A DNA stretch of 64,000 bases, from NCBI GenBank assembly GCA_937862815.1, contig CALMED010000002.1, positions 186,001 to 250,000 on the forward strand, written 5' to 3'. The position numbers and the translations under genes are program-made. The stretch comes from an uncultured Chitinophagaceae bacterium. Its GTDB lineage: Bacteria > Bacteroidota > Bacteroidia > Chitinophagales > Chitinophagaceae. The notes below the pieces were generated by a model, which saw only the letters and a list, made by a program, of their open reading frames with translations, did no database searches and was not told where the DNA came from. Below are positions 52,078-63,743 of this stretch, piece after piece. Within the stretch, counting starts at the first letter, position 1, and the number at the start of each line of letters is the position of its first letter.

Positions 52078-53580
52078 TTAGTGCTTGAAATGCCGCATGC
52101 CCGTAATAACCAGCGCCAGGTTGTTTTGTTGGCAGTAGTTGATGGAATCCTGGTCGCGGATGGACCCTCCGGGTTGGACAAAGGCGGTAATGCCGGCCTG
52201 GTGTCCCAGCTGCACACAGTCATCGAAGGGGAAGAAGGCGTCGCTGGCCAGAACGGCTCCCTGCAGATCAAAACCAAACTGCCGTGCTTTTTCCACCGAC
52301 TGGCGCAGGGCATCGATCCGGCTGGTTTGCCCGCAGCCCTTACCCACCAGCTGGCGGTCTTTCGCCAGTGCAATGGCATTCGACTTCAGGTGCTTGCATA
52401 CCAGGTTGGCAAAAAGCAGGTCTTCTTTTTCTGTGTCTGTTGCCGCTCGTCCGCCGGCCTCGGTCCAGGTTGTAAAATTACCCTCGTCGGGATCCTGCAC
52501 CAGCAGGCCGTTCAGGAGCGAACGCGACTGCATAACGCCCGTGGGTTGTTGCAGCAGTTGCAGCAGGATGCGGTTCTTTTTGGTGCGCAGCAGGGCCAGG
52601 GCTTCTTCGCTGAAGGCCGGCGCGATGAGCACTTCAAAAAATAGTTCATGGATGGCTTCGGCCGTGGCTTTGTCGATGGTACCATTGCACACCAGCACAC
52701 CCCCGAAGGCGCTTTCCGGATCACCCGCCAGTGCGGCCTGCCAGCTTTCGTGTACGGTTGACCGTTGGGCCACCCCGCACACATTGGTGTGTTTGATGAT
52801 GGCAAAGGTGGTGGCGCCGAATTCGCGGATCAGCTGCAGGGCCGCGTCCACATCCACCAGGTTGTTGTACGACAGTTCCTTGCCGTTCAGCTGCTTGAAC
52901 AGCTCGTTGAGGTGGCCGAAGAAGCGGGCCGCCTGGTGGGGGTTTTCGCCGTAGCGCAGTACTTTCTCCTCTTTGTGGAAGGGCGTGGCGATACGGGTCT
53001 GGTGAAAGTAGTTGGAGATGGCGGTATCGTAGGCGGTGCACACATCAAATGCCTTGCGGGCAAAATCCCGCCGCTGATCGTAGCTGGTGGCGCCGTCCTG
53101 TTCCCGCAGCAGTTGTTCCAGTACGGCGTATTCTTTTTTGGCGGCCAGCACCACCACGTCGCGGTGGTTTTTGGCGGCGGCGCGGATCATGGAGGGCCCG
53201 CCGATGTCAATCTTTTCGATGATGGCCGCTTCATCGGTGGTGGAGGCTACGGTCTCTTCAAACGGGTAGAGATCCACTATCACCAGGTCCATTTCCGGGA
53301 TGCCGTACTGCTGCATCTCGGCGTGGTGCTGTTCATCGTCCCGCTTGCCCAGGATGCCCCCGAACACCGACGGGTGCAGGGTTTTCACCCGTCCGCCCAG
53401 GATGGAGGGATAGCTGGTCAGTTGCTCCACCGGTACCACGGGGATGCCCAGCTGCTCAATGAACTGCCGGGTGCCGCCGGTGGAATAGAGGGTTACGTTT
53501 TGCTGGTGCAGGAGTTGTACAAGGGAATCCAGCCCGTCTTTATAGAAAACGGAAATCAGCGCGGTTTGAATCTTTTTCAT
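52078..53580 (-). CDS. purH: Bifunctional AICAR transformylase/IMP cyclohydrolase
   Basis: A 500-residue enzyme catalysing the last two steps of IMP synthesis. N-terminal IMP cyclohydrolase (LYSTGGTRQFIEQLGI, ILGGRVKTLHPSVFGGIL), then the AICAR transformylase with AIIKHTNVCGVA (the K-H pair), and a C-terminal QPGGSIRDQDSI, LVITGMRHFKH. Second nucleotide-biosynthesis gene in the region with carB. ATG at 53580. Confidence 0.97.
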   Translation of the reverse strand: MKKIQTALISVFYKDGLDSLVQLLHQQNVTLYSTGGTRQFIEQLGIPVVPVEQLTSYPSILGGRVKTLHPSVFGGILGKRDDEQHHAEMQQYGIPEMDLVIVDLYPFEETVASTTDEAAIIEKIDIGGPSMIRAAAKNHRDVVVLAAKKEYAVLEQLLREQDGATSYDQRRDFARKAFDVCTAYDTAISNYFHQTRIATPFHKEEKVLRYGENPHQAARFFGHLNELFKQLNGKELSYNNLVDVDAALQLIREFGATTFAIIKHTNVCGVAQRSTVHESWQAALAGDPESAFGGVLVCNGTIDKATAEAIHELFFEVLIAPAFSEEALALLRTKKNRILLQLLQQPTGVMQSRSLLNGLLVQDPDEGNFTTWTEAGGRAATDTEKEDLLFANLVCKHLKSNAIALAKDRQLVGKGCGQTSRIDALRQSVEKARQFGFDLQGAVLASDAFFPFDDCVQLGHQAGITAFVQPGGSIRDQDSINYCQQNNLALVITGMRHFKH

Positions 53581-53669: not shown

Positions 53670-55739
53670 CTACCTGCCAAGGTCCAGCACAAAAGCCCCC
53701 GCTTCGCGGGTGTTGTGACAGGGCAGGCGCAGCGAATCGCATTCCCGTTTCCAGCGTTCGGCTGCCCGCTGCGAGTTGGAACCGTCTATTACCACTGTTT
53801 CCACCCGCAGGCGCTGCGCCAACTCGCTCAGCCGGATGCGGGAGTTGTGGGAGAGTACCACAACGGCAGGAACGCCCGTTGCTTGTAGTTCCTCCGGCCG
53901 GAAGTGCCGGTCGGCCAGCACCACCTGCCGTCCCTGCAGCTGCCAGTCAGGCCGGGCCGCCGGTACGAATTGCAGCGGTTGGTTGTACACACCAAAACGT
54001 ATGCGGGAGGGTTTGAGGTGAAAGTTGCGCAGGAAACCGTCTGCCAGCAGCGCGGTGTCGCCCCGGAAATAACACCGCCGTCCCAGCATCAGGTCCACGG
54101 CCTGGTGGCGCGGCAGGTTGTATACGATGAGCCGTTGTTGCTGGTGCTGCCGGAAAGCCTGTTGCACGTCCATCACCCCAAACACCAGCAAAGAACCCAG
54201 CATCCATTTCACTGCGCCGGCGTCTTTGTGCAGCAGCCAGCGGCTTGCAGCGGCAATCACCGCAAACAGCGCAATGGTTTGCAGGGGATGATGCGAGATG
54301 CCGTCGGTAACAGAAAACACAAAGCGGTCTATCCACAGGATGCAGGTGTTGAGGATTTGCAGGAGCTGCGAAAGCAGGCCGCCCAGTGTGGTGGCCAGTG
54401 GCGGCAGCAACGAGGCAGGCAGGAGGGTCAGGGATCCGTACAGACTGAGCGTTCCCAGCGGCACCGCCACCAGGTTGGCCGGCAGGAAGAGGTTGGGGCT
54501 CTGGTGAAAATGATACATGCACAAGGGCAGGGTCAGGATCTGGGCGGAAAGGGTGACGGCATTCAGCTGCCAGATTTTATCGAGCAGGGGGTTGCGCACC
54601 AGCAACAGGTTGCAGATGGGTTGCTGAAAGGTGACGATGCTCAGCACTGCGGCATAGGAGAGCTGAAAACCCACATCCCAGAGCAGGAACGGATTCCAGC
54701 ACAGCAGCAGGAAGGCCGATGCGGCCAGGCTGTTGTACACCGTTCCCCTGCGTTGCAGCCACTCGCCGCCGGCCAGGAAGCTGAACAGGATCACAGCCCG
54801 CAACACGGAAGCGGATGCGCCGGTATAAAGACTGAAGATCCACAGCAGTGCCACCACCAGCACCATGCGGAAGCGCCAGTGCCGCAGCGGGCGCAGCAGG
54901 AAGAGGAGCAGCACATAGATCAGTCCCAGGTGCATGCCACTGATGGCGATGATGTGCACCACACCCCCGTTGCTGTAGGCCTGCACCAGGTCGCGGTCGA
55001 GGTCGTCGCGGTAGCCTGCCAGCAGGGCTTCGGCAATGGCGGCCGCGTCGGGATCGGGTATGTAGCGTTGCAGGGTGGCCAGCACAAAACTGCGTGCCCG
55101 GAAGAGACCGGCCCGGAATGCGTTACCGCTGCGGTGCGGGGCGATGTGGTAAAGGCCTTCTTGCAGGAAGAGCTGGTGGGTGATCCCCTGGAACAGGGCG
55201 TAGCGTTGGTAATCGAAGCCGCCGGGATTGCCGGCGTTGGTGATGGGCTGCGGGGCCGTGCGGGTGTAGAGCACGGATCCGTACGACAGGTGCCGGGGAA
55301 AACGGTCTTTGGGAAAGTAAAGGAGGAGCTTGCCGCTTACCCTGACCGATCGTTCTGTGCCGTAGAGGGCAACGGCCTCTGCCACCACTTTGAAGGTGTT
55401 GGGCCGCTCCTGGGGAGGTTCCAGCAGGTGCAGTTCAACAACATCATCTGCCTGCAGCCGGTGCCCCAGCCAGCGGGGGTCGTGCTGCGGCAACTGCAGG
55501 GCTACCAGCAACACACCCACACCAAAGGGCAGCAACTGCAGCCCGGCACCACCCAGCCACCGCAGGGAATAGTTGCGGTAAGCAGGAACATAGCGGGAAA
55601 CAAGGGACAGACAGGTACCGGCCAGGATCGGCCAACAGCCACTCCCGGCAGGGAGCGATACGTACCAGGCCACCAGGATGCCGGCAGCCAGGGGCAGCAA
55701 CAACCGCAGGAACGGTGCGGTCTTCCAGGGAAGAATCAT
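53670..55739 (-). CDS. comEC: ComEC/Rec2-type DNA uptake membrane protein
   Basis: A 689-residue polytopic protein: a DUF4131-like N-terminal part with three helices and a soluble OB-like domain, then the competence domain with SNGGVVHIIAISGMHLGLIYVLL and the multi-helix channel. The end of typical ComEC holds a metallo-beta-lactamase domain with HxHxDH; here ~170 soluble residues remain but that motif is absent. It may conduct single-stranded DNA during uptake. A one-mismatch -7 box (TACCTTTC) precedes the ATG at 55739. Confidence 0.88.
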   Translation of the reverse strand: MILPWKTAPFLRLLLPLAAGILVAWYVSLPAGSGCWPILAGTCLSLVSRYVPAYRNYSLRWLGGAGLQLLPFGVGVLLVALQLPQHDPRWLGHRLQADDVVELHLLEPPQERPNTFKVVAEAVALYGTERSVRVSGKLLLYFPKDRFPRHLSYGSVLYTRTAPQPITNAGNPGGFDYQRYALFQGITHQLFLQEGLYHIAPHRSGNAFRAGLFRARSFVLATLQRYIPDPDAAAIAEALLAGYRDDLDRDLVQAYSNGGVVHIIAISGMHLGLIYVLLLFLLRPLRHWRFRMVLVVALLWIFSLYTGASASVLRAVILFSFLAGGEWLQRRGTVYNSLAASAFLLLCWNPFLLWDVGFQLSYAAVLSIVTFQQPICNLLLVRNPLLDKIWQLNAVTLSAQILTLPLCMYHFHQSPNLFLPANLVAVPLGTLSLYGSLTLLPASLLPPLATTLGGLLSQLLQILNTCILWIDRFVFSVTDGISHHPLQTIALFAVIAAASRWLLHKDAGAVKWMLGSLLVFGVMDVQQAFRQHQQQRLIVYNLPRHQAVDLMLGRRCYFRGDTALLADGFLRNFHLKPSRIRFGVYNQPLQFVPAARPDWQLQGRQVVLADRHFRPEELQATGVPAVVVLSHNSRIRLSELAQRLRVETVVIDGSNSQRAAERWKRECDSLRLPCHNTREAGAFVLDLGR

Positions 55740-55937
55740 AGGTTGAGCGACAGGTGTTTACGGAAAGGTACGAAAACTAACGGTGTTGCCGAAACAGGCG
55801 CCTTGCCCGGTTTCCACATAAAAGTAATGGACCTGCACAACTATCGAATTGAAGGGAGTGGGCGTGGTTTACGCTGGTTACAGGCACACCTATCCTGCTG
55901 TACAGGCATTACACGGTAACAGCAAGTCCTCCGTTGG

Positions 55938-57131
55938 TTATTTACTCAGGTACATGCTCCGGTCTTTGTACAGCTGCCGGAACCAGGGATCCCGCAGGTC
56001 TTTGATGAAGCGGATGGCTTCGCCGGTGCTTTTCATCTCCGGACCCAGTTCTTTGTTCACGTTGGGAAATTTGTTGAAGCTGAACACCGGTTCTTTGACG
56101 GCGTAGCCTGTGAGCTTTTTCTCAAACGTGAAATCGGACAGTTTGTTGGCGCCCAGCATCACTTTGGTGGCGATGTTGAGGTAGGGAATCTGATAGGCTT
56201 TGGCAATGAAAGGCGTGGTGCGGGAAGCGCGGGGGTTGGCTTCAATCACATACACTTTGCCGTCTTTGATGGCAAACTGGATGTTGATGAGCCCGCGGAT
56301 GTCCAGCGCTTTGGCAATGCGTTTGGCATATTCTTCCATGGTGGCCACCACCAGCGGGGTGAGGTTAAATTCGGGTAACACTGCATGGCTGTCGCCGCTG
56401 TGGATGCCGGCCGGCTCAATGTGCTCCATCACTCCCATCACATGGAATTCTTCTCCATCGTAAATAGCATCTATTTCCGCTTCCTGGCAGCGGTCGAGGA
56501 AATGATCAATCAGAATTTTATTGCCGGGGATGTGTTTCAGCAGGCTCAGGACCGCTTTTTCCAGTTCATCATCGTTGATCACAATGCGCATACGCTGTCC
56601 GCCCAGTACATAACTGGGGCGTACCAGTACCGGGTAGCCCACTTCTTTGGCCACTTCCATGGCTTCGTCGGTGGTGAAGGCGGTTCCGTAGCGGGGATAA
56701 GGGATATCGAGTTCTTTCAGCAGATCGCTGAAGCGGCCGCGGTCTTCGGCAATGTCCATGTTGTCGAAGGAGGTGCCGATGATGCGGATGCCTTTTTCGT
56801 GCAGGCGTTTGGCCAGCTTGAGGGCCGTCTGACCGCCCAGCTGCACAATCACGCCGTAGGGTTGTTCCAGTTCAATGATTTCCCAGAGGTGTTCCCAGTA
56901 CACCGGTTCGAAATACAGCTTATCGGCCATATCAAAATCGGTACTAACGGTCTCGGGGTTGCAGTTTACCATGATCGCTTCGTATCCGCACTCTTTAATG
57001 GCGAGTAGTCCGTGCACGCAGCAGTAGTCAAACTCAATACCCTGGCCAATGCGGTTGGGACCGCTGCCCAGTACAATCACTTTTTTTCGGGAGGAGGGGA
57101 TGGACTCGTTGTGTACAACTGTATTTGCCAT
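55938..57131 (-). CDS. carB: Carbamoyl phosphate synthetase large subunit, C-terminal half as a separate gene
   Basis: A 397-residue protein equal to the second ATP-grasp half (carbamate kinase site) of CarB: KKVIVLGSGPNRIGQGIEFDY, MVNCNPETVSTDFD, VRPSYVLGGQRM, EPAGIHSGDSHAVLP, ANPRASRTTPF. Its first residues include HNESIPSSRKK, resembling the linker that joins the halves in whole CarB proteins. It ends soon after ELGPEMKSTGEAI, so the allosteric MGS-like domain of E. coli CarB (last ~140 residues) is missing. The other half is at 60249-61889, three genes away. It has its own promoter, so it is a real separate gene, not a broken piece. Confidence 0.93.
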   Translation of the reverse strand: MANTVVHNESIPSSRKKVIVLGSGPNRIGQGIEFDYCCVHGLLAIKECGYEAIMVNCNPETVSTDFDMADKLYFEPVYWEHLWEIIELEQPYGVIVQLGGQTALKLAKRLHEKGIRIIGTSFDNMDIAEDRGRFSDLLKELDIPYPRYGTAFTTDEAMEVAKEVGYPVLVRPSYVLGGQRMRIVINDDELEKAVLSLLKHIPGNKILIDHFLDRCQEAEIDAIYDGEEFHVMGVMEHIEPAGIHSGDSHAVLPEFNLTPLVVATMEEYAKRIAKALDIRGLINIQFAIKDGKVYVIEANPRASRTTPFIAKAYQIPYLNIATKVMLGANKLSDFTFEKKLTGYAVKEPVFSFNKFPNVNKELGPEMKSTGEAIRFIKDLRDPWFRQLYKDRSMYLSK

Positions 57132-57138
57132 GGCGGTG

Positions 57139-57169
57139 CAAAGGTAGGGTCCGGCAGAAAACGGCACAA
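57139..57169 (-). promoter_or_regulatory. Promoter of the CarB C-terminal half (TTG-N20-TACCTTTG)
   Basis: On the minus strand, TTG (57169-57167), a 20-base spacer and an exact -7 box (57146-57139), ending seven bases before the ATG at 57131. It is among the best promoter matches in the window and predicts a very short leader. Confidence 0.7.
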
Positions 57170-57193
57170 GCAAAATACCGGCTGTGCACAAAT

Positions 57194-58747
57194 TTATTGC
57201 AGCACCCGGTAGAGGCGTATGCCGGCGGTGTCGGCTGTCAGCTGCAGGAACGCAAGGGTGTCCAGCTGTTGCCGGATGGTGTGGTGGTCGGGGGTAAGCA
57301 CCACCCATCGGGGAGTAATCCGGCGGATGAGTCCTTCCCGGCTGCTGTCACCTTCCGGGGCGAAAAACTGCCGCAACTCCTCCCGCCGGGCATCGTTATC
57401 GGTTATCCAGTAGGCCGGAAAAACGCTGGCCACCACCCGGGCGCCGTAGCCGGGGAGGTAGCGGTTGCAGGTACTGTCGGCCAGTACCAGGTCGCCATAG
57501 CCGATGTAATGGCTGATGCTCCCCAGCCGGTGCGCCACACAGGCCGGAGGCAGCAGGCCAAAGGGTTCGCCCGGTAGTGCTTTACAGGTGACCACCGGGG
57601 TGACACTGGTGCGGTAATTGGTTGCAAGGGCCGGCAGTGCATACGGCAGGCAGAGCAGGAGGGCGGCGGCCGGCAGGATAAAGGAAGGCCGTTGCTGGTA
57701 GCGGTGCAGGGTTTCCCGCAAAAAAACCAGCTGGCCCAGCACAGCCAGGAAGGCAACCATGCGGCCCCAGCCATAAGCTCCGGTGAAATAACCATAAAAA
57801 AACAAGAGGGCCAGCGGCAGGGCTGCCAGCAGCAACGGGAGATGACGACGTACTCCGGGTTTACCATTCAGCAGCAGCAGAATCAACGGCAAGGCAAGTG
57901 GATACAGCTCCAGGTAGATGTTGGAATACAGTTCCCGGCTGTCGCTGTGAAACTGGTGACCGGCTCCGGCATACCCCAGCAGGCTGTAAAAGGGGTACCA
58001 GGGCCAGAGCCCGGCAACGACAAAGGGAAGCACCAGCACCGCCGCCAACCAGGGCAGCCACTGCCGCAGGGGGATCTTGGTCTGCAGGCCGGCAGCGAAC
58101 AGCAGGGAGCCCAGGAACAGGAAGGTGAGCGGGTGGGTCAGCAACACCACGCTACCGGTGAGTAACAGCAGAAGGGAAAGGGCGCCCTTTTGCCATTTTC
58201 TACCCGGCCGGGAGATCAATTGCTGGAAGAGTCCCGCAGCCAGCACCGCTCCCACGAAGCTGAATGTGGAAGGATAACCCAGGCTGTAGGGAAAGGCCCG
58301 CAGGTGGAAAAAGGAGCTGAAAAAGGGTGGATCCACCCCCCAGCAGACCAGCAAGGTTAACAGCAGGAGCGTAAACGAACGACCGGGCGGTCCGGGTGGA
58401 AGAAAAAGGCGGGCCAGGATGCCTACGGCTGCGAAGAACAGCAGGAGGTTGAGCAGCGACAGCAGGTTCAGCAGGGTGGCGGCATCAAGCTGCAGGAGAT
58501 GACCCAGTCCGCCCGCTGCCATGAGGTAGGGGGAGAAAAATGCATGGGGTTGATTGGCTGCCACGATGGGGTGCGCCGGGTGCAGGGGCTGGCGGATCAG
58601 TTCGTTCAGCACGGCCCGGTGCTCCCAGTAATCGCCCACCCAGGGAGCTTGCCGGATGTAGAGCCCTTGTTGTGCCAGCAGGAGCAGGCAAAGCAGGAGG
58701 GCGGCCATCTGCCAGGCTCGCTGGTTAGTGAAAAGGGTGCTGCGCAT
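57194..58747 (-). CDS. Polytopic membrane protein of unknown function (possible GT-C fold)
   Basis: A 517-residue inner-membrane protein with about 11 hydrophobic helices and a short C-terminal soluble part (VVLTPDHHTIRQQLDTLAFLQL). The first large loop has GDYWEHRAVLNELIRQPLHPAHP, an acidic pair soon after helix 1 that recalls GT-C glycosyltransferases (lipid-linked sugar transferases); this is inference. It lies with DUF5989 and the SGNH hydrolase between the two carB halves. No named family is recognised. Confidence 0.7.
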   Translation of the reverse strand: MRSTLFTNQRAWQMAALLLCLLLLAQQGLYIRQAPWVGDYWEHRAVLNELIRQPLHPAHPIVAANQPHAFFSPYLMAAGGLGHLLQLDAATLLNLLSLLNLLLFFAAVGILARLFLPPGPPGRSFTLLLLTLLVCWGVDPPFFSSFFHLRAFPYSLGYPSTFSFVGAVLAAGLFQQLISRPGRKWQKGALSLLLLLTGSVVLLTHPLTFLFLGSLLFAAGLQTKIPLRQWLPWLAAVLVLPFVVAGLWPWYPFYSLLGYAGAGHQFHSDSRELYSNIYLELYPLALPLILLLLNGKPGVRRHLPLLLAALPLALLFFYGYFTGAYGWGRMVAFLAVLGQLVFLRETLHRYQQRPSFILPAAALLLCLPYALPALATNYRTSVTPVVTCKALPGEPFGLLPPACVAHRLGSISHYIGYGDLVLADSTCNRYLPGYGARVVASVFPAYWITDNDARREELRQFFAPEGDSSREGLIRRITPRWVVLTPDHHTIRQQLDTLAFLQLTADTAGIRLYRVLQ

Positions 58748-58822
58748 GAAAGTGTTGATGCATGAAACAGAAAGTACCTGCAGGTCTTCGGGCCAGTATT
58801 CATCCGCCGGGATGTACAGGTA

Positions 58823-58975
58823 TCAGAACAGCGTGTAAATGAAAGGCGCCACCGCCGAACTGCCGCCGAAGATCAGCAACACGCCCAACAGGAGCAGGAA
58901 AATGATGATAGGCGCCAGCCACCATTTTTTCCGTTCTTTCATGTACAGCCAGAGATCGTTTAGTAGTTCCCGCAT
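58823..58975 (-). CDS. DUF5989 family single-helix membrane protein
   Basis: A 50-residue protein: a basic amphipathic start (LLNDLWLYMKERKKWW) and one helix (LAPIIIFLLLLGVLLIFGG), ending SSAVAPFIYTLF. This is the full DUF5989 pattern. Such proteins are usually found beside SGNH hydrolases, SxtJ-like proteins and carbamoyltransferases in envelope or natural-product loci; their role is unknown. It has its own promoter. It is shorter than most annotation cut-offs but the match is clear. Confidence 0.88.
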   Translation of the reverse strand: MRELLNDLWLYMKERKKWWLAPIIIFLLLLGVLLIFGGSSAVAPFIYTLF

Positions 58976-58997
58976 TGGATTGTTTTAAGCGTCTTTA

Positions 58998-59029
58998 CAA
59001 ATGTAAGAAAGCGGCGGGTCAAAATGCAA
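58998..59029 (-). promoter_or_regulatory. Promoter of the DUF5989 gene (TTG-N21-TACATTTG)
   Basis: On the minus strand, TTG (59029-59027), a 21-base spacer and an exact -7 box (59005-58998), 22 bases before the ATG. It should drive DUF5989 and probably the membrane protein after it. Confidence 0.65.
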
Positions 59030-59049
59030 GCTAACCGGTAAATGCGGTT

Positions 59050-60147
59050 TTACTGCAGGCAGGCCTCCTGCAGCACCGGCGCAAGCTCCTTTGCCAGGAT
59101 GGCCGCCACCGCTGCGGCACCCTGCTTATTAAAGTGGATGAAATCGTAGAAAAGGCCGGGATCTTTGGGGAGGAGACGGGCCAGGTCCACCACCGGTACC
59201 GAACCGGCAAAAGAACGCACCACATCATTGTACTGCTCCAGGATTTGCTCCTGCAGCAGGTTGTTCCGCACCGGGGTAAAGCCGGGGAGGTATTTGAGGC
59301 GCAGGTCGTTTCCGTTGCGGTCCTGCACGGCGCCGTACAGTGAGGGCTGGGTGAGCAGGATGGGGGTGATGCCCTGCTCCCGGCAGAGGTTGGTGATGAC
59401 CTGCAACCGTTGCCGGTAGCCGGGCAGAAAGGCTTGTTGCCGGGCTACCTGCTCCTGCCGGTAAGCCGGCGAAAGCAGGGTGTCGGGCAATGCGGAGGGG
59501 TTCACTTCTTTGTGGATGAGGCCTTTCCTGTAGGCCAGCCTGATGCTGTAGAGCTGGAAGAGGGTGGCGCCGGTGGCGGTTTTCTGCAGCAGGGATTTGA
59601 TCAGCTGCCCGGGGGAGCCGGTGTGCAGTTTGTTTTCCTGCAGCAGGTCGAAGGATTCGGGGCGTTCCGTTTCCACGTCGTTCACGCCGGTGAGCAGGAG
59701 CACAAAGCGGGGACGGAGGCGAACAATGTATTCCCGCACCAGCAACTGGTGACCAAAGGTGGAGTGTCCGTCCATGCCGGCGTTGTTCACCCAGCTGCGG
59801 GGTACAGTTTTCTGCAGGTGTTGCCCCAGCAAGTAGGGCCAGGTGTCGGCATCGCTCAGGAAACGGCATTCGGTGGTGCTGCCGCCGATGCAGATCACGG
59901 AGCAGAGCCGGTTGATGCTGTCGGTGGGCAGCGGACCACGGAAGCCCAGGGCATTGCGGCTGTAGTGGATTTTTTCGTCCAGCTGCCCGATCCATTTGTT
60001 GTGGAATACGGCTTCCTGCTGCGCCGGCCAGATCAGCGAACCCTGCCGGTTGAACCGCATAACCGGGTTGTAGATGCGGAGGACGAGTTCGCACAGCAGC
60101 AAGGCTGCCAGCAAACCGAAAAGCAGGGCCGTGAGATTCTTCCGCAT
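59050..60147 (-). CDS. SGNH/GDSL hydrolase with N-terminal membrane anchor
   Basis: A 365-residue protein anchored by one helix (LTALLFGLLAALLLCELVLRIY). The SGNH blocks are complete: IGGSTTE with the nucleophilic Ser, NAGMDGHSTFG with Gly, LTGVNDVE with Asn, and DFIHFNKQG with the Asp-x-x-His. It would act in the periplasm on O-acyl groups of a glycan or lipid; the substrate is unknown. The ATG at 60147 is preferred over upstream in-frame codons that overlap the carB terminator. It is the first of the three genes between the carB halves. Confidence 0.88.
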   Translation of the reverse strand: MRKNLTALLFGLLAALLLCELVLRIYNPVMRFNRQGSLIWPAQQEAVFHNKWIGQLDEKIHYSRNALGFRGPLPTDSINRLCSVICIGGSTTECRFLSDADTWPYLLGQHLQKTVPRSWVNNAGMDGHSTFGHQLLVREYIVRLRPRFVLLLTGVNDVETERPESFDLLQENKLHTGSPGQLIKSLLQKTATGATLFQLYSIRLAYRKGLIHKEVNPSALPDTLLSPAYRQEQVARQQAFLPGYRQRLQVITNLCREQGITPILLTQPSLYGAVQDRNGNDLRLKYLPGFTPVRNNLLQEQILEQYNDVVRSFAGSVPVVDLARLLPKDPGLFYDFIHFNKQGAAAVAAILAKELAPVLQEACLQ

Positions 60148-60198
60148 GAAGTGAAGGTATTTAAAAACCGTTGGAAGGACGAGGTGCAGGACCACAAG

Positions 60199-60228
60199 AA
60201 AAAAGCAGGAAGAAATCCCCCTGCTTTT
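60199..60228 (-). terminator. Terminator after the CarB N-terminal half
   Basis: A 9-bp stem (60201-60209 with 60220-60228), ten-base loop and a T6 tract on the minus strand, 20 bases after the stop of carB N-half. It shows that this half ends its own transcript. Confidence 0.75.
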
Positions 60229-60248
60229 CGTACGCTTTCTCTGATTAT

Positions 60249-61889
60249 TTATTCAAATGTACTGTAGAAATAAGGGGTCTTGGCCTCAAACTCGGCACTG
60301 CAGGTATCCACCATTTTGTACACCCGTGTGATGCCCAGTGCTTTCCTTTTTTCGTACACCGCTTCGTCGGTGCCGTCTTTGATGATATGGGCAATCTGCT
60401 CGTCGCCAAAGCCCATCCGCTTGGCTTCCCGCAGCAGGGATTCGGGCAGCGATTGCAGGTCGTGTTTGGCCAGTTCCTTTTCCATGTTCACAATATCCTG
60501 GATCTGGTAAATAAACCAGCGGTCAATTTTGGTGGCTTCCACGATGGTTTTCACGCTCACCCCGGCCATCAGGGCGTCTTTGATGCGGAAGATGCGGTCC
60601 CACTTCGGCGTTTTGATGTATTCGATCAGTTCTTCGGCCCGCATGAGGCTCAGGCCGTAGTAGCCCAGTCCCACCGCGTTGTTCTCCAGGCTCTGGCAGG
60701 CTTTCTGTACGGCTTCGGTGAAACTGCGGCCAATGGACATCACCTCACCCACACTTTTCATCTGCAGGCCCAGCCGGTCGTCGGCTCCCTTGAATTTATC
60801 AAAGTTCCAGCGCGGCATTTTTACAATCACGTAATCCAGCGCCGGTTCAAAGTAGGCGGAGGTGGTTTGCGTAATCTGGTTCTTCAGCTCGTCCAGCGTA
60901 TAACCGATGGCCAGTTTGGCGGCAATCTTGGCAATGGGGTAACCCGTGGCCTTGCTGGCCAGCGCCGAGGAGCGGCTCACCCGCGGGTTGATTTCCACGG
61001 AAATGATTTCTTCTGTTTCGGGATTCAGGGCAAACTGCACGTTGCAGCCGCCGGCGAAATTGCCCAGGCTGCGCATCATTTTGATGGCCATGTTGCGCAT
61101 GTTCTGGAAGGCGGTATCGCTGAGGGTCATGGCCGGGGCCACGGTGATGCTGTCGCCCGTGTGCACGCCCATGGGGTCGAAGTTCTCCACCGTACAAATG
61201 ATCACCACGTTGTCGTTCTTATCCCGCAGCAGCTCCAGTTCAAACTCCTTCCAGCCGAGCAGGGCTTTTTCCACCAACACTTCATGGATGGGACTGGCCT
61301 GCAGTCCCCGTTCGAGGGCCGCGTCCAGTTCGTCCTTGGTATTGACAAAACCGCCGCCGGTACCGCCCAGGGTAAAAGAAGGGCGGATCACCAGCGGAAC
61401 GCCGATCTCTTGCGCAAATTCCTTGCCCTCCAGCAGTGAGTTGGCCACCTTGCTGGGCGCAACACCAATGCCGATCCGGATCATCAGCTGGCGGAACTTT
61501 TCCCGGTCTTCGGCCGTATCAATGGCCTTCACATCCACGCCAATCATCCGCACGCCATATTTCTCCCACACACCCAACTCATCGGCTTCCTTGCAGAGGT
61601 TGAGCGCGGTTTGTCCGCCCATGGTGGGCAGTACAGCGTCTATCTGGTTTTCTTCCAGGATCTGTTCAATGCTTTCCACGGTGAGGGGTAGCAGGTATAC
61701 TTTATCGGCCATCATGGGGTCGGTCATGATGGTGGCCGGGTTACTGTTGATGAGGATTACGCGGATGCCCTCCTCCCGCAGACTGCGGGCTGCCTGGGAG
61801 CCGGAATAGTCGAATTCGCAGGCCTGCCCGATGATGATGGGGCCGCTTCCTACGATTAAAACTGATTGAATGGAGGTATCTCTGGGCAT
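60249..61889 (-). CDS. carB: Carbamoyl phosphate synthetase large subunit, N-terminal half as a separate gene
   Basis: A 546-residue protein equal to residues 1 to about 553 of E. coli CarB: the carboxyphosphate ATP-grasp domain ([49 protein letters not shown]) and the oligomerisation domain, ending [20 protein letters not shown]. In whole CarB this last segment runs straight on into the second half; here a stop follows. CarB uses ammonia from CarA and bicarbonate to make carbamoyl phosphate for pyrimidines and arginine. The two halves must assemble as separate chains. carA is not in the window. Confidence 0.95.
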
Positions 61890-61905
61890 GGGGTGAATTT
61901 GGCTG

Positions 61906-61913
61906 CAAAAGTA
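61906..61913 (-). promoter_or_regulatory. -7 box for the CarB N-terminal half (TACTTTTG)
   Basis: Exact TAnnTTTG on the minus strand, 16 bases before the ATG at 61889. No TTG is seen at the usual upstream distance. Confidence 0.5.
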
Positions 61914-62024
61914 TTGGATTGAAAGGATTGACTGCCCGATTTTTTTGCACCCGTTGCCGGCCCTGCCCAATGGGTTTTAACGCTTCCACCGCACACAGTT
62001 CCCGGCACACTCCCCGGGCTTCGT

Positions 62025-62032
62025 TATTTTTG
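62025..62032 (+). promoter_or_regulatory. -7 box four bases before the M23 peptidase gene (TATTTTTG)
   Basis: Exact TAnnTTTG with only four bases to the ATG at 62037; predicts a leaderless transcript. Confidence 0.5.
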
Positions 62033-62036
62033 CCGC

Positions 62037-63743
62037 ATGCGCCAACCCATTTTAATTCTTTTATTCTTCGTTAGCATAGCTTCCGCCGCGGAGGCCCAGC
62101 TCTTCCCGCCGTTGAATTACCCCTCACATTACTTCCGCTATCCACTGGATATACCGGTGAAACTCAACGCCAACTTCGGTGAAATGCGTCCCAACCATTT
62201 TCACATGGGTCTTGACCTCTTTACCGAACGCCGCGAAAACCTGCCGGTCTATGCGGCAGCCGACGGATGGGTTTCCAAAATCAAAATAGACCCCAACGGC
62301 TTTGGCAATGCCATCTACCTCGACCATCCCAACGGCTTCACCACCCTCTACGCCCATATGAACACCTTCCCGCCGCAAACGCTGGAGGCCATCGAAGAAG
62401 GACAATACGCGAAGGAAAGCTGGAAGGGCGATGTGGTGTTTGAGCCGGGTCGCTTCCCGGTGAAAAAAGGGCAGTTCATTGGCTACAGTGGCAATACCGG
62501 GGCTTCGGCCGGTCCGCATGTGCATTACGAAATCCGCCGCACGGCCGACGACGCCTGTCTCAACGCCCTGCTGTTTCACAAGGTGTACGACGTGACCCCG
62601 CCCGACATTACCCGGCTGGCCGTGTACGACCGCACCAAAAGCACCTACGAACAAACGCCCCGCACCCTGGCGCCCGTGCGGGCAGGCAGCGGGTACACCG
62701 TCCCCGGCGGCTTGATAACGGTCACCAGTAACCGCATCAGCTTTGCGTTGGTGGCCACCGACCGGGTGACCGGCGTACCCAACAACAACGGTATATTTGA
62801 GGCGGTGGTGTACGTGGACGATGAGCCTGTGAGCGGCTTCCGCATAGACGGGGTGGATTACCTGCAGACCCGGTATCTCAACGCACACATTGATTACCGC
62901 ATCCGTTCCGCCGGCGGATCCTACCTGCAGCACCTCACACCCCTGCCCGGCGACCGCCTGCCCATTTACTACCGCAAAGGGGACGGGGTGATCCGGCTCG
63001 ACGATACCGCCCGCCACCAGGTATCCATCGTGGTGAAGGATGCCAACGGCAATGCCTCTACATTGCGCTTTCAGCTGCAGCGCACGGGACAGCCTGCTCC
63101 TGCGGTTAATGTGCAGCAGGACAGCCGCTACATGCTGCCCAACCAGATCAATGTGTTTGAACGCGACGATGTGCAGGTGGTAAGCACCGAAAACAGCTTT
63201 TACGATGCCTTCCGGCTGGTGTACAACTACAAAACCAATGCGGCCGCCGTTTCCAACGTGCACGTGCTGCACACGCCCGTTATACCGGTGCACGACTCCA
63301 TGACCTTCCGCATCCGTCCCGTTAAACCGGTGTCCGAAAGCGGGCAGCAGCGCGTGGTGATACACAAGCTGGCAAAAGGCCGCACCGATGTGGCCCGGGC
63401 CCGCCTGGTAAACGGCTGGTACGAAGCCCGGTTCCGCGAGTGGGGCGAATACTGGCTGGAAGTGGATGAAGTACCGCCCACGCTGGCGGTGGCAGGTGTT
63501 ACCGACGGCGGGGTGGTGAGCGCCGGCACCCTCATCACCTGCACCGTGGCCGACGACCGCAAAAAGATCCGCAGCTTCCGCGCCGAACTGAACGGGAACT
63601 GGCTGATGTTTTCCGGGCTGGGACCGGTGTTCCGCTACCGGGTGGATAAACATTGTCCGCCGGGCGAGCACGAACTGAAGCTGCTGGTGGAGGATGAGGC
63701 CGGTAACACCACCCAACGCATCATCCGGTTTTCCCGGCGTTGA
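62037..63743 (+). CDS. M23 family zinc metallopeptidase
   Basis: A 568-residue exported protein (signal peptide ending SAAEAQ). The LytM/M23 domain is at about residues 40-180: FGEMRPNHFHMGLDLF with the first His and Asp, TLYAHMNTFP, and GPHVHYEIRR with the HxH pair. All zinc ligands are present, so it should be active on peptidoglycan or another Gly-rich peptide. The long C-terminus has repeated strand-rich Ig-like segments (VDEVPPTLAVAGVTDGG near the end). It is divergent from carB N-half. Confidence 0.92.
   Translation: MRQPILILLFFVSIASAAEAQLFPPLNYPSHYFRYPLDIPVKLNANFGEMRPNHFHMGLDLFTERRENLPVYAAADGWVSKIKIDPNGFGNAIYLDHPNGFTTLYAHMNTFPPQTLEAIEEGQYAKESWKGDVVFEPGRFPVKKGQFIGYSGNTGASAGPHVHYEIRRTADDACLNALLFHKVYDVTPPDITRLAVYDRTKSTYEQTPRTLAPVRAGSGYTVPGGLITVTSNRISFALVATDRVTGVPNNNGIFEAVVYVDDEPVSGFRIDGVDYLQTRYLNAHIDYRIRSAGGSYLQHLTPLPGDRLPIYYRKGDGVIRLDDTARHQVSIVVKDANGNASTLRFQLQRTGQPAPAVNVQQDSRYMLPNQINVFERDDVQVVSTENSFYDAFRLVYNYKTNAAAVSNVHVLHTPVIPVHDSMTFRIRPVKPVSESGQQRVVIHKLAKGRTDVARARLVNGWYEARFREWGEYWLEVDEVPPTLAVAGVTDGGVVSAGTLITCTVADDRKKIRSFRAELNGNWLMFSGLGPVFRYRVDKHCPPGEHELKLLVEDEAGNTTQRIIRFSRR

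What the first reader, a model, noticed from the sequence alone, without database searches (positions are those of the whole stretch)
55938..61889. Carbamoyl phosphate synthetase large subunit split into two genes with three unrelated genes between them
CarB is normally one chain of ~940-1,070 residues. Here the N-half (60249-61889) ends exactly at the linker (…YFYSTFE, then stop), and the C-half (55938-57131) begins within that linker (…NESIPSSRKK). Between them lie an SGNH hydrolase, a DUF5989 protein and a polytopic membrane protein, all on the same strand. The N-half has its own -7 box and a terminator; the C-half has a TTG-N20-TACCTTTG promoter. All ATP-grasp motifs are intact in both halves. 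This is not a frameshift but a stable two-gene form, as known in a few deep lineages (Aquifex, Methanocaldococcus). It suggests that insertion of a cassette at a domain boundary was tolerated because a promoter and a start codon were available.
Basis: partly seen in the sequence, partly recalled or inferred. Interest (0 to 1): 0.8.

Follow-up and report, generated by a model that had tools for sequence, protein, structure and literature searches.

The report
Split carB around a carbamoyltransferase cassette
In this bacterium the gene for the enzyme that makes carbamoyl phosphate is cut into two genes, and what lies between them is the remnant of a gene set that uses carbamoyl phosphate; relatives carry the whole set in the same spot, and it seems to have entered that spot more than once.

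Summary
In detail: carB is two genes (N-half 546 aa, C-half 397 aa), cut at the linker between the oligomerisation and carbamoyl-phosphate domains, and no intact copy was found in the genome. The interpretation needs three changes. (1) A split carB is common in this family: of 147 genomes, 54 are split, 81 fused, 12 incomplete or unclear; in 47 of the 54 the halves lie at least 36 kb apart or on different contigs. Fused looks ancestral. (2) The genes between are not unrelated. In other Lacibacter genomes and some distant relatives the gap holds an O-carbamoylation cassette: SGNH hydrolase, NodU/CmcH carbamoyltransferase, DUF5989, SxtJ, sometimes a GT-C-like membrane protein. The window keeps the SGNH, DUF5989 and membrane genes and lacks the carbamoyltransferase and SxtJ. 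A consumer of carbamoyl phosphate sat between the halves of its producer. (3) The same SGNH subfamily occupies this site in at least three, probably four, carB lineages. In LIN-48 both carB halves group with fused relatives while the insert groups with Ferruginibacter's, so the insert moved without its flanks. Whether insertion caused the split in Lacibacter or followed it is open. Split synthetases are known (Aquifex); this nested, recurrent arrangement I did not find in my paper searches.

The parts
60249..61889 (-). carB N-half (carboxyphosphate and oligomerisation domains), 546 aa
   Evidence: Pfam, E. coli CarB 1-548, coordinates
55938..57131 (-). carB C-half (carbamoyl-phosphate domain, no MGS domain), 397 aa
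   Evidence: Pfam, E. coli CarB 554-919, coordinates
59050..60147 (-). SGNH hydrolase of the subfamily found between carB halves (SGNH1), 365 aa from ATG
   Evidence: PF13472; clade of in-carB SGNH1, on a long branch of its own
58823..58975 (-). DUF5989 protein, 50 aa, the only one found in this genome
   Evidence: PF19451; own-genome search
57194..58747 (-). polytopic membrane protein, 517 aa, GT-C-like; homologues (34-37%) at the same place in L181, L182, L186
   Evidence: AlphaFold2 model pLDDT 69, Foldseek best ArnT 5f15 E 8e-4; no Pfam hit
57139..57169 (-). promoter-like TTG-N20-TACCTTTG, 7 nt before the C-half ATG
   Evidence: a -7 box at the same distance in the six other Lacibacter-clade genomes
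58998..59005 (-). TACATTTG box upstream of DUF5989
61906..61913 (-). TACTTTTG box upstream of the N-half
60200..60229 (-). terminator-like hairpin right after the N-half stop
   Evidence: RNA fold -17.1 kcal/mol; not listed by the scan
62037..63743 (+). M23-type peptidase gene, a conserved neighbour upstream of carB
   Evidence: cluster c2, 48 entries; 32 of 65 fused loci; name by eye from the sequence
53670..55739 (-). ComEC-type gene, a conserved neighbour downstream of carB
   Evidence: cluster c3, 31 entries; name by eye from the sequence
52078..53580 (-). purH-type gene, next conserved neighbour
   Evidence: cluster c9, 14 entries; name by eye from the sequence

Best explanation
The two halves are the two chains of a working carbamoyl phosphate synthetase large subunit: the N-chain makes carboxyphosphate and carbamate with CarA's ammonia, the C-chain phosphorylates carbamate, and they assemble without a covalent link. 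The cut lies in a permissive linker. The genes between the halves are the decayed remains of an O-carbamoylation cassette (SGNH hydrolase, NodU/CmcH carbamoyltransferase, DUF5989, SxtJ, GT-C-like membrane protein), which in relatives probably decorates a surface glycan with carbamoyl groups drawn from carbamoyl phosphate. The cassette has come to lie at this site in several carB lineages, at least once by horizontal transfer. The C-half is read from a promoter of its own or from upstream, so the split does little harm. The cassette can then decay or the halves drift apart while the split persists, because precise re-joining is unlikely. Shown: anatomy, synteny, recurrence, decay states. Inferred: assembly of the chains, glycan role, route of transfer, expression, irreversibility.
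For: Both halves complete with active-site motifs; no other carB found; a single carA, on another contig. Flanks: the window has M23-N ... C-ComEC-PurH, and fused relatives have M23-carB-ComEC/PurH. Gap content: L179 SGNH1-CTase-SGNH2-DUF5989-SxtJ; L188 the same without SGNH2; L180 likewise, with an unmatched 1.1 kb; L181, L182 and L186 also have the membrane protein; L185 SGNH1-CTase-SxtJ-DUF5989; L183 and L187 SGNH1 alone. G027 has SGNH1-CTase-DUF5989-SxtJ, packed closely: 3 nt from N stop to SGNH start, and SxtJ and C-half frames abut. L183 keeps what looks like the promoter, start and end of a deleted DUF5989 just before its C-half (by eye). SGNH1 tree: 11 in-carB rows plus stand-alone L184 are one clade, 99/99. 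carB of nine carriers held as one clade is rejected, p-AU 2e-41; careful tree: four places. L187: N and C each reject one clade with L183/L185 (p 4e-7, 0.0015) and sit with fused G127/G035 (91/82 and 92/80, not starred; 99/97 on both halves), but its SGNH1 nests with L185 (96/90). A -7 box lies within 60 nt of 38 of 50 C-half starts, against 16 of 1210 internal Met controls.
Against: No biochemistry: assembly of the chains rests on analogy with Aquifex. No recombination tracts were visible in the DNA flanks (too diverged), nothing convincing in the junction repeats of three loci, and no integrase was looked for. L187 plus G027 as one clade is not rejected (p 0.0875), so the entries may be three, not four. 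In the window the carbamoyltransferase is absent from the gap, so the pairing is not live here; the copy on C12 is of another branch. Quick tree searches missed better trees, and the p rests on a quick search. The SGNH1 tree warns of long branches and of odd letter make-up of the window's row. The scan used two peptide patterns of this subfamily, so it favours close relatives.
Confidence: 0.75

Rival explanations
1. Split first, insertion later: carB broke by a small change at the linker (adjacent halves), and the cassette later landed in the new intergenic gap, where insertion is harmless.
For: Adjacent halves without the cassette exist (G045, G134, G082, G011; G045's gap is 17 nt, read). Lacibacter with dispersed groups A and B as one clade is not rejected (p 0.65), and the careful tree joins Lacibacter to group A weakly (82/75). 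Lacibacter C-halves share the NESIPS start with most dispersed ones.
Against: L187, L183/L185 and G027 have fused nearest relatives. NESIPS also occurs in G027, G001, G111 and G045, so it is a weak mark.
Confidence: 0.45
2. The insertion of the cassette itself split carB, separately in each carrier lineage.
For: Carriers L187, L183/L185 and G027 sit among fused genomes in the careful tree. C-half starts of L183, L185 and L187 keep the fused-type NESKVS motif. Where the flanks were seen, the halves remain at the ancestral place.
Against: Not resolved for Lacibacter. No junction signature found in the three loci tried.
Confidence: 0.45
3. Selection for coupling: the cassette is kept inside carB because co-expression of carbamoyl phosphate synthesis and use is an advantage.
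For: CmcH/NodU enzymes use carbamoyl phosphate (PMC6022934 passages). Close packing in G027. Recurrence at one site.
Against: In the window, L183 and L187 no carbamoyltransferase is found in the gap. The C-half has its own -7 box in the Lacibacter clade and in G027, and the window's N-half is followed by a terminator-like hairpin. Of 20 family hits at 55% identity or more only G083 and G027 are in carB; the other 18 loci show no carB half.
Confidence: 0.2
4. One ancient in-carB cassette in the family ancestor, lost with precise re-fusion in all fused lineages.
For: In-carB SGNH1 rows are nearly one clade.
Against: Needs many exact re-fusions. Listed outgroup genomes of the class are nearly all fused. 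L187's SGNH1 conflicts with both of its carB halves.
Confidence: 0.05
5. Misassembly or binning artefact.
For: The window genome is a 47-contig assembly with 8.5% contamination.
Against: The same arrangement in L. cauensis and L. luteus records and in MAGs, on contigs from 87 kb to 3.1 Mb.
Confidence: 0.01

Closest known systems
Aquifex aeolicus carbamoyl phosphate synthetase (CPS.A, CPS.B, GLN; Ahuja et al. 2001, seen only as cited in PMC6022934)
   Same: Large subunit in two chains from separate genes.
   Different: The Aquifex sequence was not compared here. Here the split recurs within one family and encloses a carbamoyl-phosphate-using cassette or its remains.
Methanocaldococcus-type split carB1/carB2 (recalled, not tested)
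   Same: Two-gene large subunit.
   Different: Archaeal; no comparison made here.
NodU/CmcH O-carbamoyltransferases and their SxtJ/DUF5989 neighbours
   Same: The in-carB CTases of L. cauensis and G027 match PF02543 and PF16861, with DUF5989 and SxtJ beside them.
   Different: In 18 other family loci the CTase is not at carB (SxtJ near in 17, DUF5989 in 16); here the set lies between carB halves, and in the window the CTase is missing.

Membership tests
CarB, carbamoyl phosphate synthetase large subunit | two preATP-grasp/ATP-grasp units plus oligomerisation domain | tested here: met
   one unit and the oligomerisation domain in the N-half, one unit in the C-half
CarB, carbamoyl phosphate synthetase large subunit | one covalent chain | tested here: not met
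   two open frames 3.1 kb apart; so it would work like CarB in two chains, as in Aquifex
CarB, carbamoyl phosphate synthetase large subunit | C-terminal MGS allosteric domain | tested here: not met
   the C-half match ends at E. coli residue 919 of 1073 and Pfam lists no MGS domain; most frames listed for the class are also about 940-1000 aa
split (two-chain) CPS of Aquifex type | cut between the two synthetase halves, after the oligomerisation domain | tested here: met
   E. coli 548 / 554; that Aquifex is cut there is recalled
split (two-chain) CPS of Aquifex type | chains assemble into an active enzyme with the glutaminase | not testable with these tools
   needs co-expression and assay
O-carbamoylation cassette (SGNH1, NodU/CmcH, DUF5989, SxtJ) | NodU/CmcH carbamoyltransferase present | tested here: not met
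   no hit at this locus; present in L. cauensis and G027. The window copy is a remnant
O-carbamoylation cassette (SGNH1, NodU/CmcH, DUF5989, SxtJ) | SGNH1 and DUF5989 in that order, same strand | tested here: met
GT-C glycosyltransferase (membrane protein) | GT-C fold | tested here: inconclusive
   pLDDT 69; Foldseek ArnT E 8e-4, TM 0.50

The most novel reading that the evidence does not exclude
A carbamoyl-phosphate-consuming cassette moves between bacteria by homing, through flanking homology, into the gene of the carbamoyl-phosphate-producing enzyme. It splits that essential gene at a permissive linker, supplies the second half with a promoter, and places producer and consumer in one operon. 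Each entry leaves a lasting split carB even after the cassette decays.
Probability: 0.25. Interest if true: 0.82.

Novelty: new variant of a known kind. Interest (0 to 1): 0.62.

Why it matters
Splitting of a housekeeping enzyme is usually treated as a rare, old event (my recollection of the field). This family is a natural experiment with fused, adjacent, interrupted and dispersed carB side by side, so it can be asked what a covalent link buys an enzyme that passes unstable intermediates from one active site to the next. If the cassette really targets or is favoured at carB, it is a case of a consumer gene set lodging inside the gene of its supplier, which would make the coupling of supply and use directly testable.

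Tried and rejected
Frameshift or assembly error: rejected by the same arrangement in independent records. Intact second carB: none found. One clade for nine cassette carriers: rejected (quick tree); one clade for L183/L185/L187/G027: rejected (p 3e-7). One clade L183/L185/L187: rejected on the joint alignment and on N and C separately. Lacibacter, groups A and B and G027 as one clade: rejected (p 4e-4). The quick trees' counts (9 changes, 6 forced; 12 and 11; N alone 9, C alone 11) are therefore not leaned on; the careful tree gives at least 10 changes, 8 forced, over 58 rows that I chose out of 113. Recombination tracts in the flanks: none visible. Junction repeats: nothing convincing in the three loci tried. 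Tandem repeats in window 55000-63000: none. Sigma-70 scan: 2 sites, no more than chance. Literature: searches listed no paper, judged by title and start of abstract, on split carB in Bacteroidota or on a carbamoyltransferase inside carB; only open-access papers are held. Of papers I saw passages of PMC6022934 and PMC11237513 (no mention of carbamoyl) and search listings of the rest.
Full report
OBSERVATION. The window is G000:C2:186001-250000 of a 3.89 Mb, 47-contig assembly, 100% complete and 8.5% contaminated. The genus is taken to be Lacibacter (Chitinophagaceae): the same-genus genome G083 has a contig of the same length as Lacibacter cauensis NZ_VLLE01000003.1. The N-half matches E. coli CarB 1-548, the C-half 554-919. 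PF02786 has seven hits in the genome, two of them the halves; the five others were not identified one by one, but each half has only one strong match in the genome. carA is single and on another contig.

HOW COMMON IS IT. The N-half and the C-half were each searched in 147 genomes of the family, 100 genera. By open-frame length and place, 81 are fused, 54 have both halves as separate genes, 3 show only one half and 9 cannot be classed (lists typed from the two tables; in G073 and G112 the C-half match is incomplete). Of the 54, 4 are adjacent, 3 lie within 6 kb (window, G083, G027) and 47 are at least 36 kb apart or on different contigs. Genomes with both halves far apart on one long contig, such as G018, G055, G067, G114, G116 and G141, show that true separation occurs. 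In the class (295 genomes, 275 with a strong match, table cut before its end) the listed genomes outside the family have fused-size frames except three of family f12 and G238. In these four the C-half is a separate gene: about 1 kb away in G429, with two small genes between that are unrelated to the cassette, and on another contig in G356, G407 and G238; G238 may be a contig break. Lack of the MGS domain looks general, not part of the split.

POLARITY. Gene-order clusters were made over 106 genomes (107 entries). In the 65 fused loci, 33 have the M23 gene or its peroxiredoxin-like neighbour, 25 have ComEC, PurH or four other genes (c5-c8) that often come first, and 19 have both sides (names by eye). 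Of 34 dispersed genomes, 20 keep the M23 or peroxiredoxin-like gene near the N-half and 12 keep ComEC, PurH or c5-c8 near the C-half; none has ComEC or PurH near the N-half or the M23 or peroxiredoxin-like gene near the C-half. So fused at that place looks ancestral, and dispersal is fission plus rearrangement. A gene for about 1100 residues (c11) follows the N-half in nine dispersed genomes (directly in seven, one gene on in two) and is in no fused locus. One clade for the two dispersed groups is not rejected (p 0.53), so they may share one fission.

WHAT LIES BETWEEN. In the window: SGNH hydrolase, DUF5989, membrane protein. In L. cauensis: SGNH, a 620-aa carbamoyltransferase with PF02543 and PF16861, a second SGNH, DUF5989 and SxtJ. 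In G027, from another part of the family: SGNH, carbamoyltransferase, DUF5989 and SxtJ, closely packed. A pattern scan of the 84,980-species genome collection with the SGNH alignment gave 22 loci. In 9 of the 22 the SGNH lies between carB halves: six Lacibacter-clade loci, L185 and L183 (Ferruginibacter MAGs) and L187 (MAG LIN-48). L181, L182 and L186 also carry the window's membrane protein just before the C-half, at 34-37% identity. The window is thus this cassette without its carbamoyltransferase and SxtJ. tblastn finds no trace of them there (none at E 1e-5 for the first, none at 1e-3 for the second). The only DUF5989 found in the genome is the one in carB. Its only carbamoyltransferase hit is on C12, beside SxtJ, and belongs to another branch of the family. 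L183 shows decay too: what look like the promoter, start codon and last codons of DUF5989 remain just before the C-half, against the intact gene in L185 (by eye). The membrane protein model (pLDDT 69) gives weak GT-C matches, ArnT first, which fits a surface-glycan role; this is inference.

RECURRENCE. The 11 in-carB SGNH1 proteins and one stand-alone protein (L184), out of 28 rows, form one clade, 99/99; the window's row is long and of odd make-up. In the carbamoyltransferase tree the in-carB rows need two changes and are less clearly placed. The carB proteins of the carriers are not one clade: holding nine of them together costs 304 log units, p-AU 2e-41, by a quick search. In the careful tree of 58 chosen rows the carriers stand in four places (Lacibacter; L183 with L185; L187; G027), and the split state needs at least 10 changes, 8 of them forced by well-supported branches. 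L187 with G027 as one clade is not rejected (p 0.0875), so at least three entries. The sharpest case is L187: its N and C halves each reject one clade with L183 and L185 (p 4e-7 and 0.0015) and sit with fused G127 and G035 (91/82 and 92/80; 99/97 for both halves together), yet its SGNH nests with L185 (96/90). The insert moved into the same site of a different carB. The cassette also stands away from carB in a genome with a fused carB: G059, whose other contig carries SGNH1-CTase-DUF5989-SxtJ (L184, L171).

EXPRESSION. 38 of 50 C-half starts in split genomes have a TANNTTTG box within 60 nt, against 16 of 1210 internal Met codons; 38 of 50 N-half starts have one too (G083 and L179, the same genome, are both in the 50). 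A TTG 17-24 nt further up was found for only 10 of the 50 C-half starts. The 12 without the box are the four adjacent pairs, L183, L185, L187, and five dispersed genomes (G066, G015, G098, G001, G075). G027, though packed like an operon, does have the box. The window's N-half is followed by a strong hairpin with a U run, so here N-half, cassette remnant and C-half look like separate units.

MECHANISM AND LIMITS. [quoted passage not shown] CmcH/NodU enzymes take their carbamoyl group from carbamoyl phosphate (same source). How the cassette finds the site is unknown: no flanking tracts or clear repeats were found. Whether insertion made the split in Lacibacter or followed it is open.

VERDICT. 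The finding is larger than stated: a common, repeated split, and a cassette of the product's consumer lodged between the halves in several lineages. As a split CPS it is a new variant of a known kind.

Noticed in passing
L159 (G090): One family member has a single CarB frame of 1104 aa, only about 48-55% identical to the window's halves and long enough to carry the MGS domain: probably a foreign carB.
   Followed up: no
L076, L077, L078 (G070): Two N-half genes on different contigs but one C-half among the listed matches.
   Followed up: no
L185:7273-8909: The N-half of this Ferruginibacter MAG matches in two pieces in different frames, so it is broken or mis-sequenced.
   Followed up: partly
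L161 (G000:C12:172360): The genome's only carbamoyltransferase hit lies with an SGNH-like match and SxtJ but no DUF5989, while the genome's only DUF5989 sits in carB; the two remnants may complement each other in trans.
   Followed up: partly
table: Several carbamoyltransferase homologues of about 40-45% identity are listed with an in-frame stop.
   Followed up: no
cluster c11 in L044, L050, L054, L083 and others: A gene for about 1100 residues lies just downstream of the carB N-half in nine dispersed split genomes and in no fused locus; it may mark a shared fission.
   Followed up: partly
L202 (G429):7658-8646: In another family of the class two small genes with lipoprotein-like starts lie between the carB halves, unrelated to the cassette.
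   Followed up: partly
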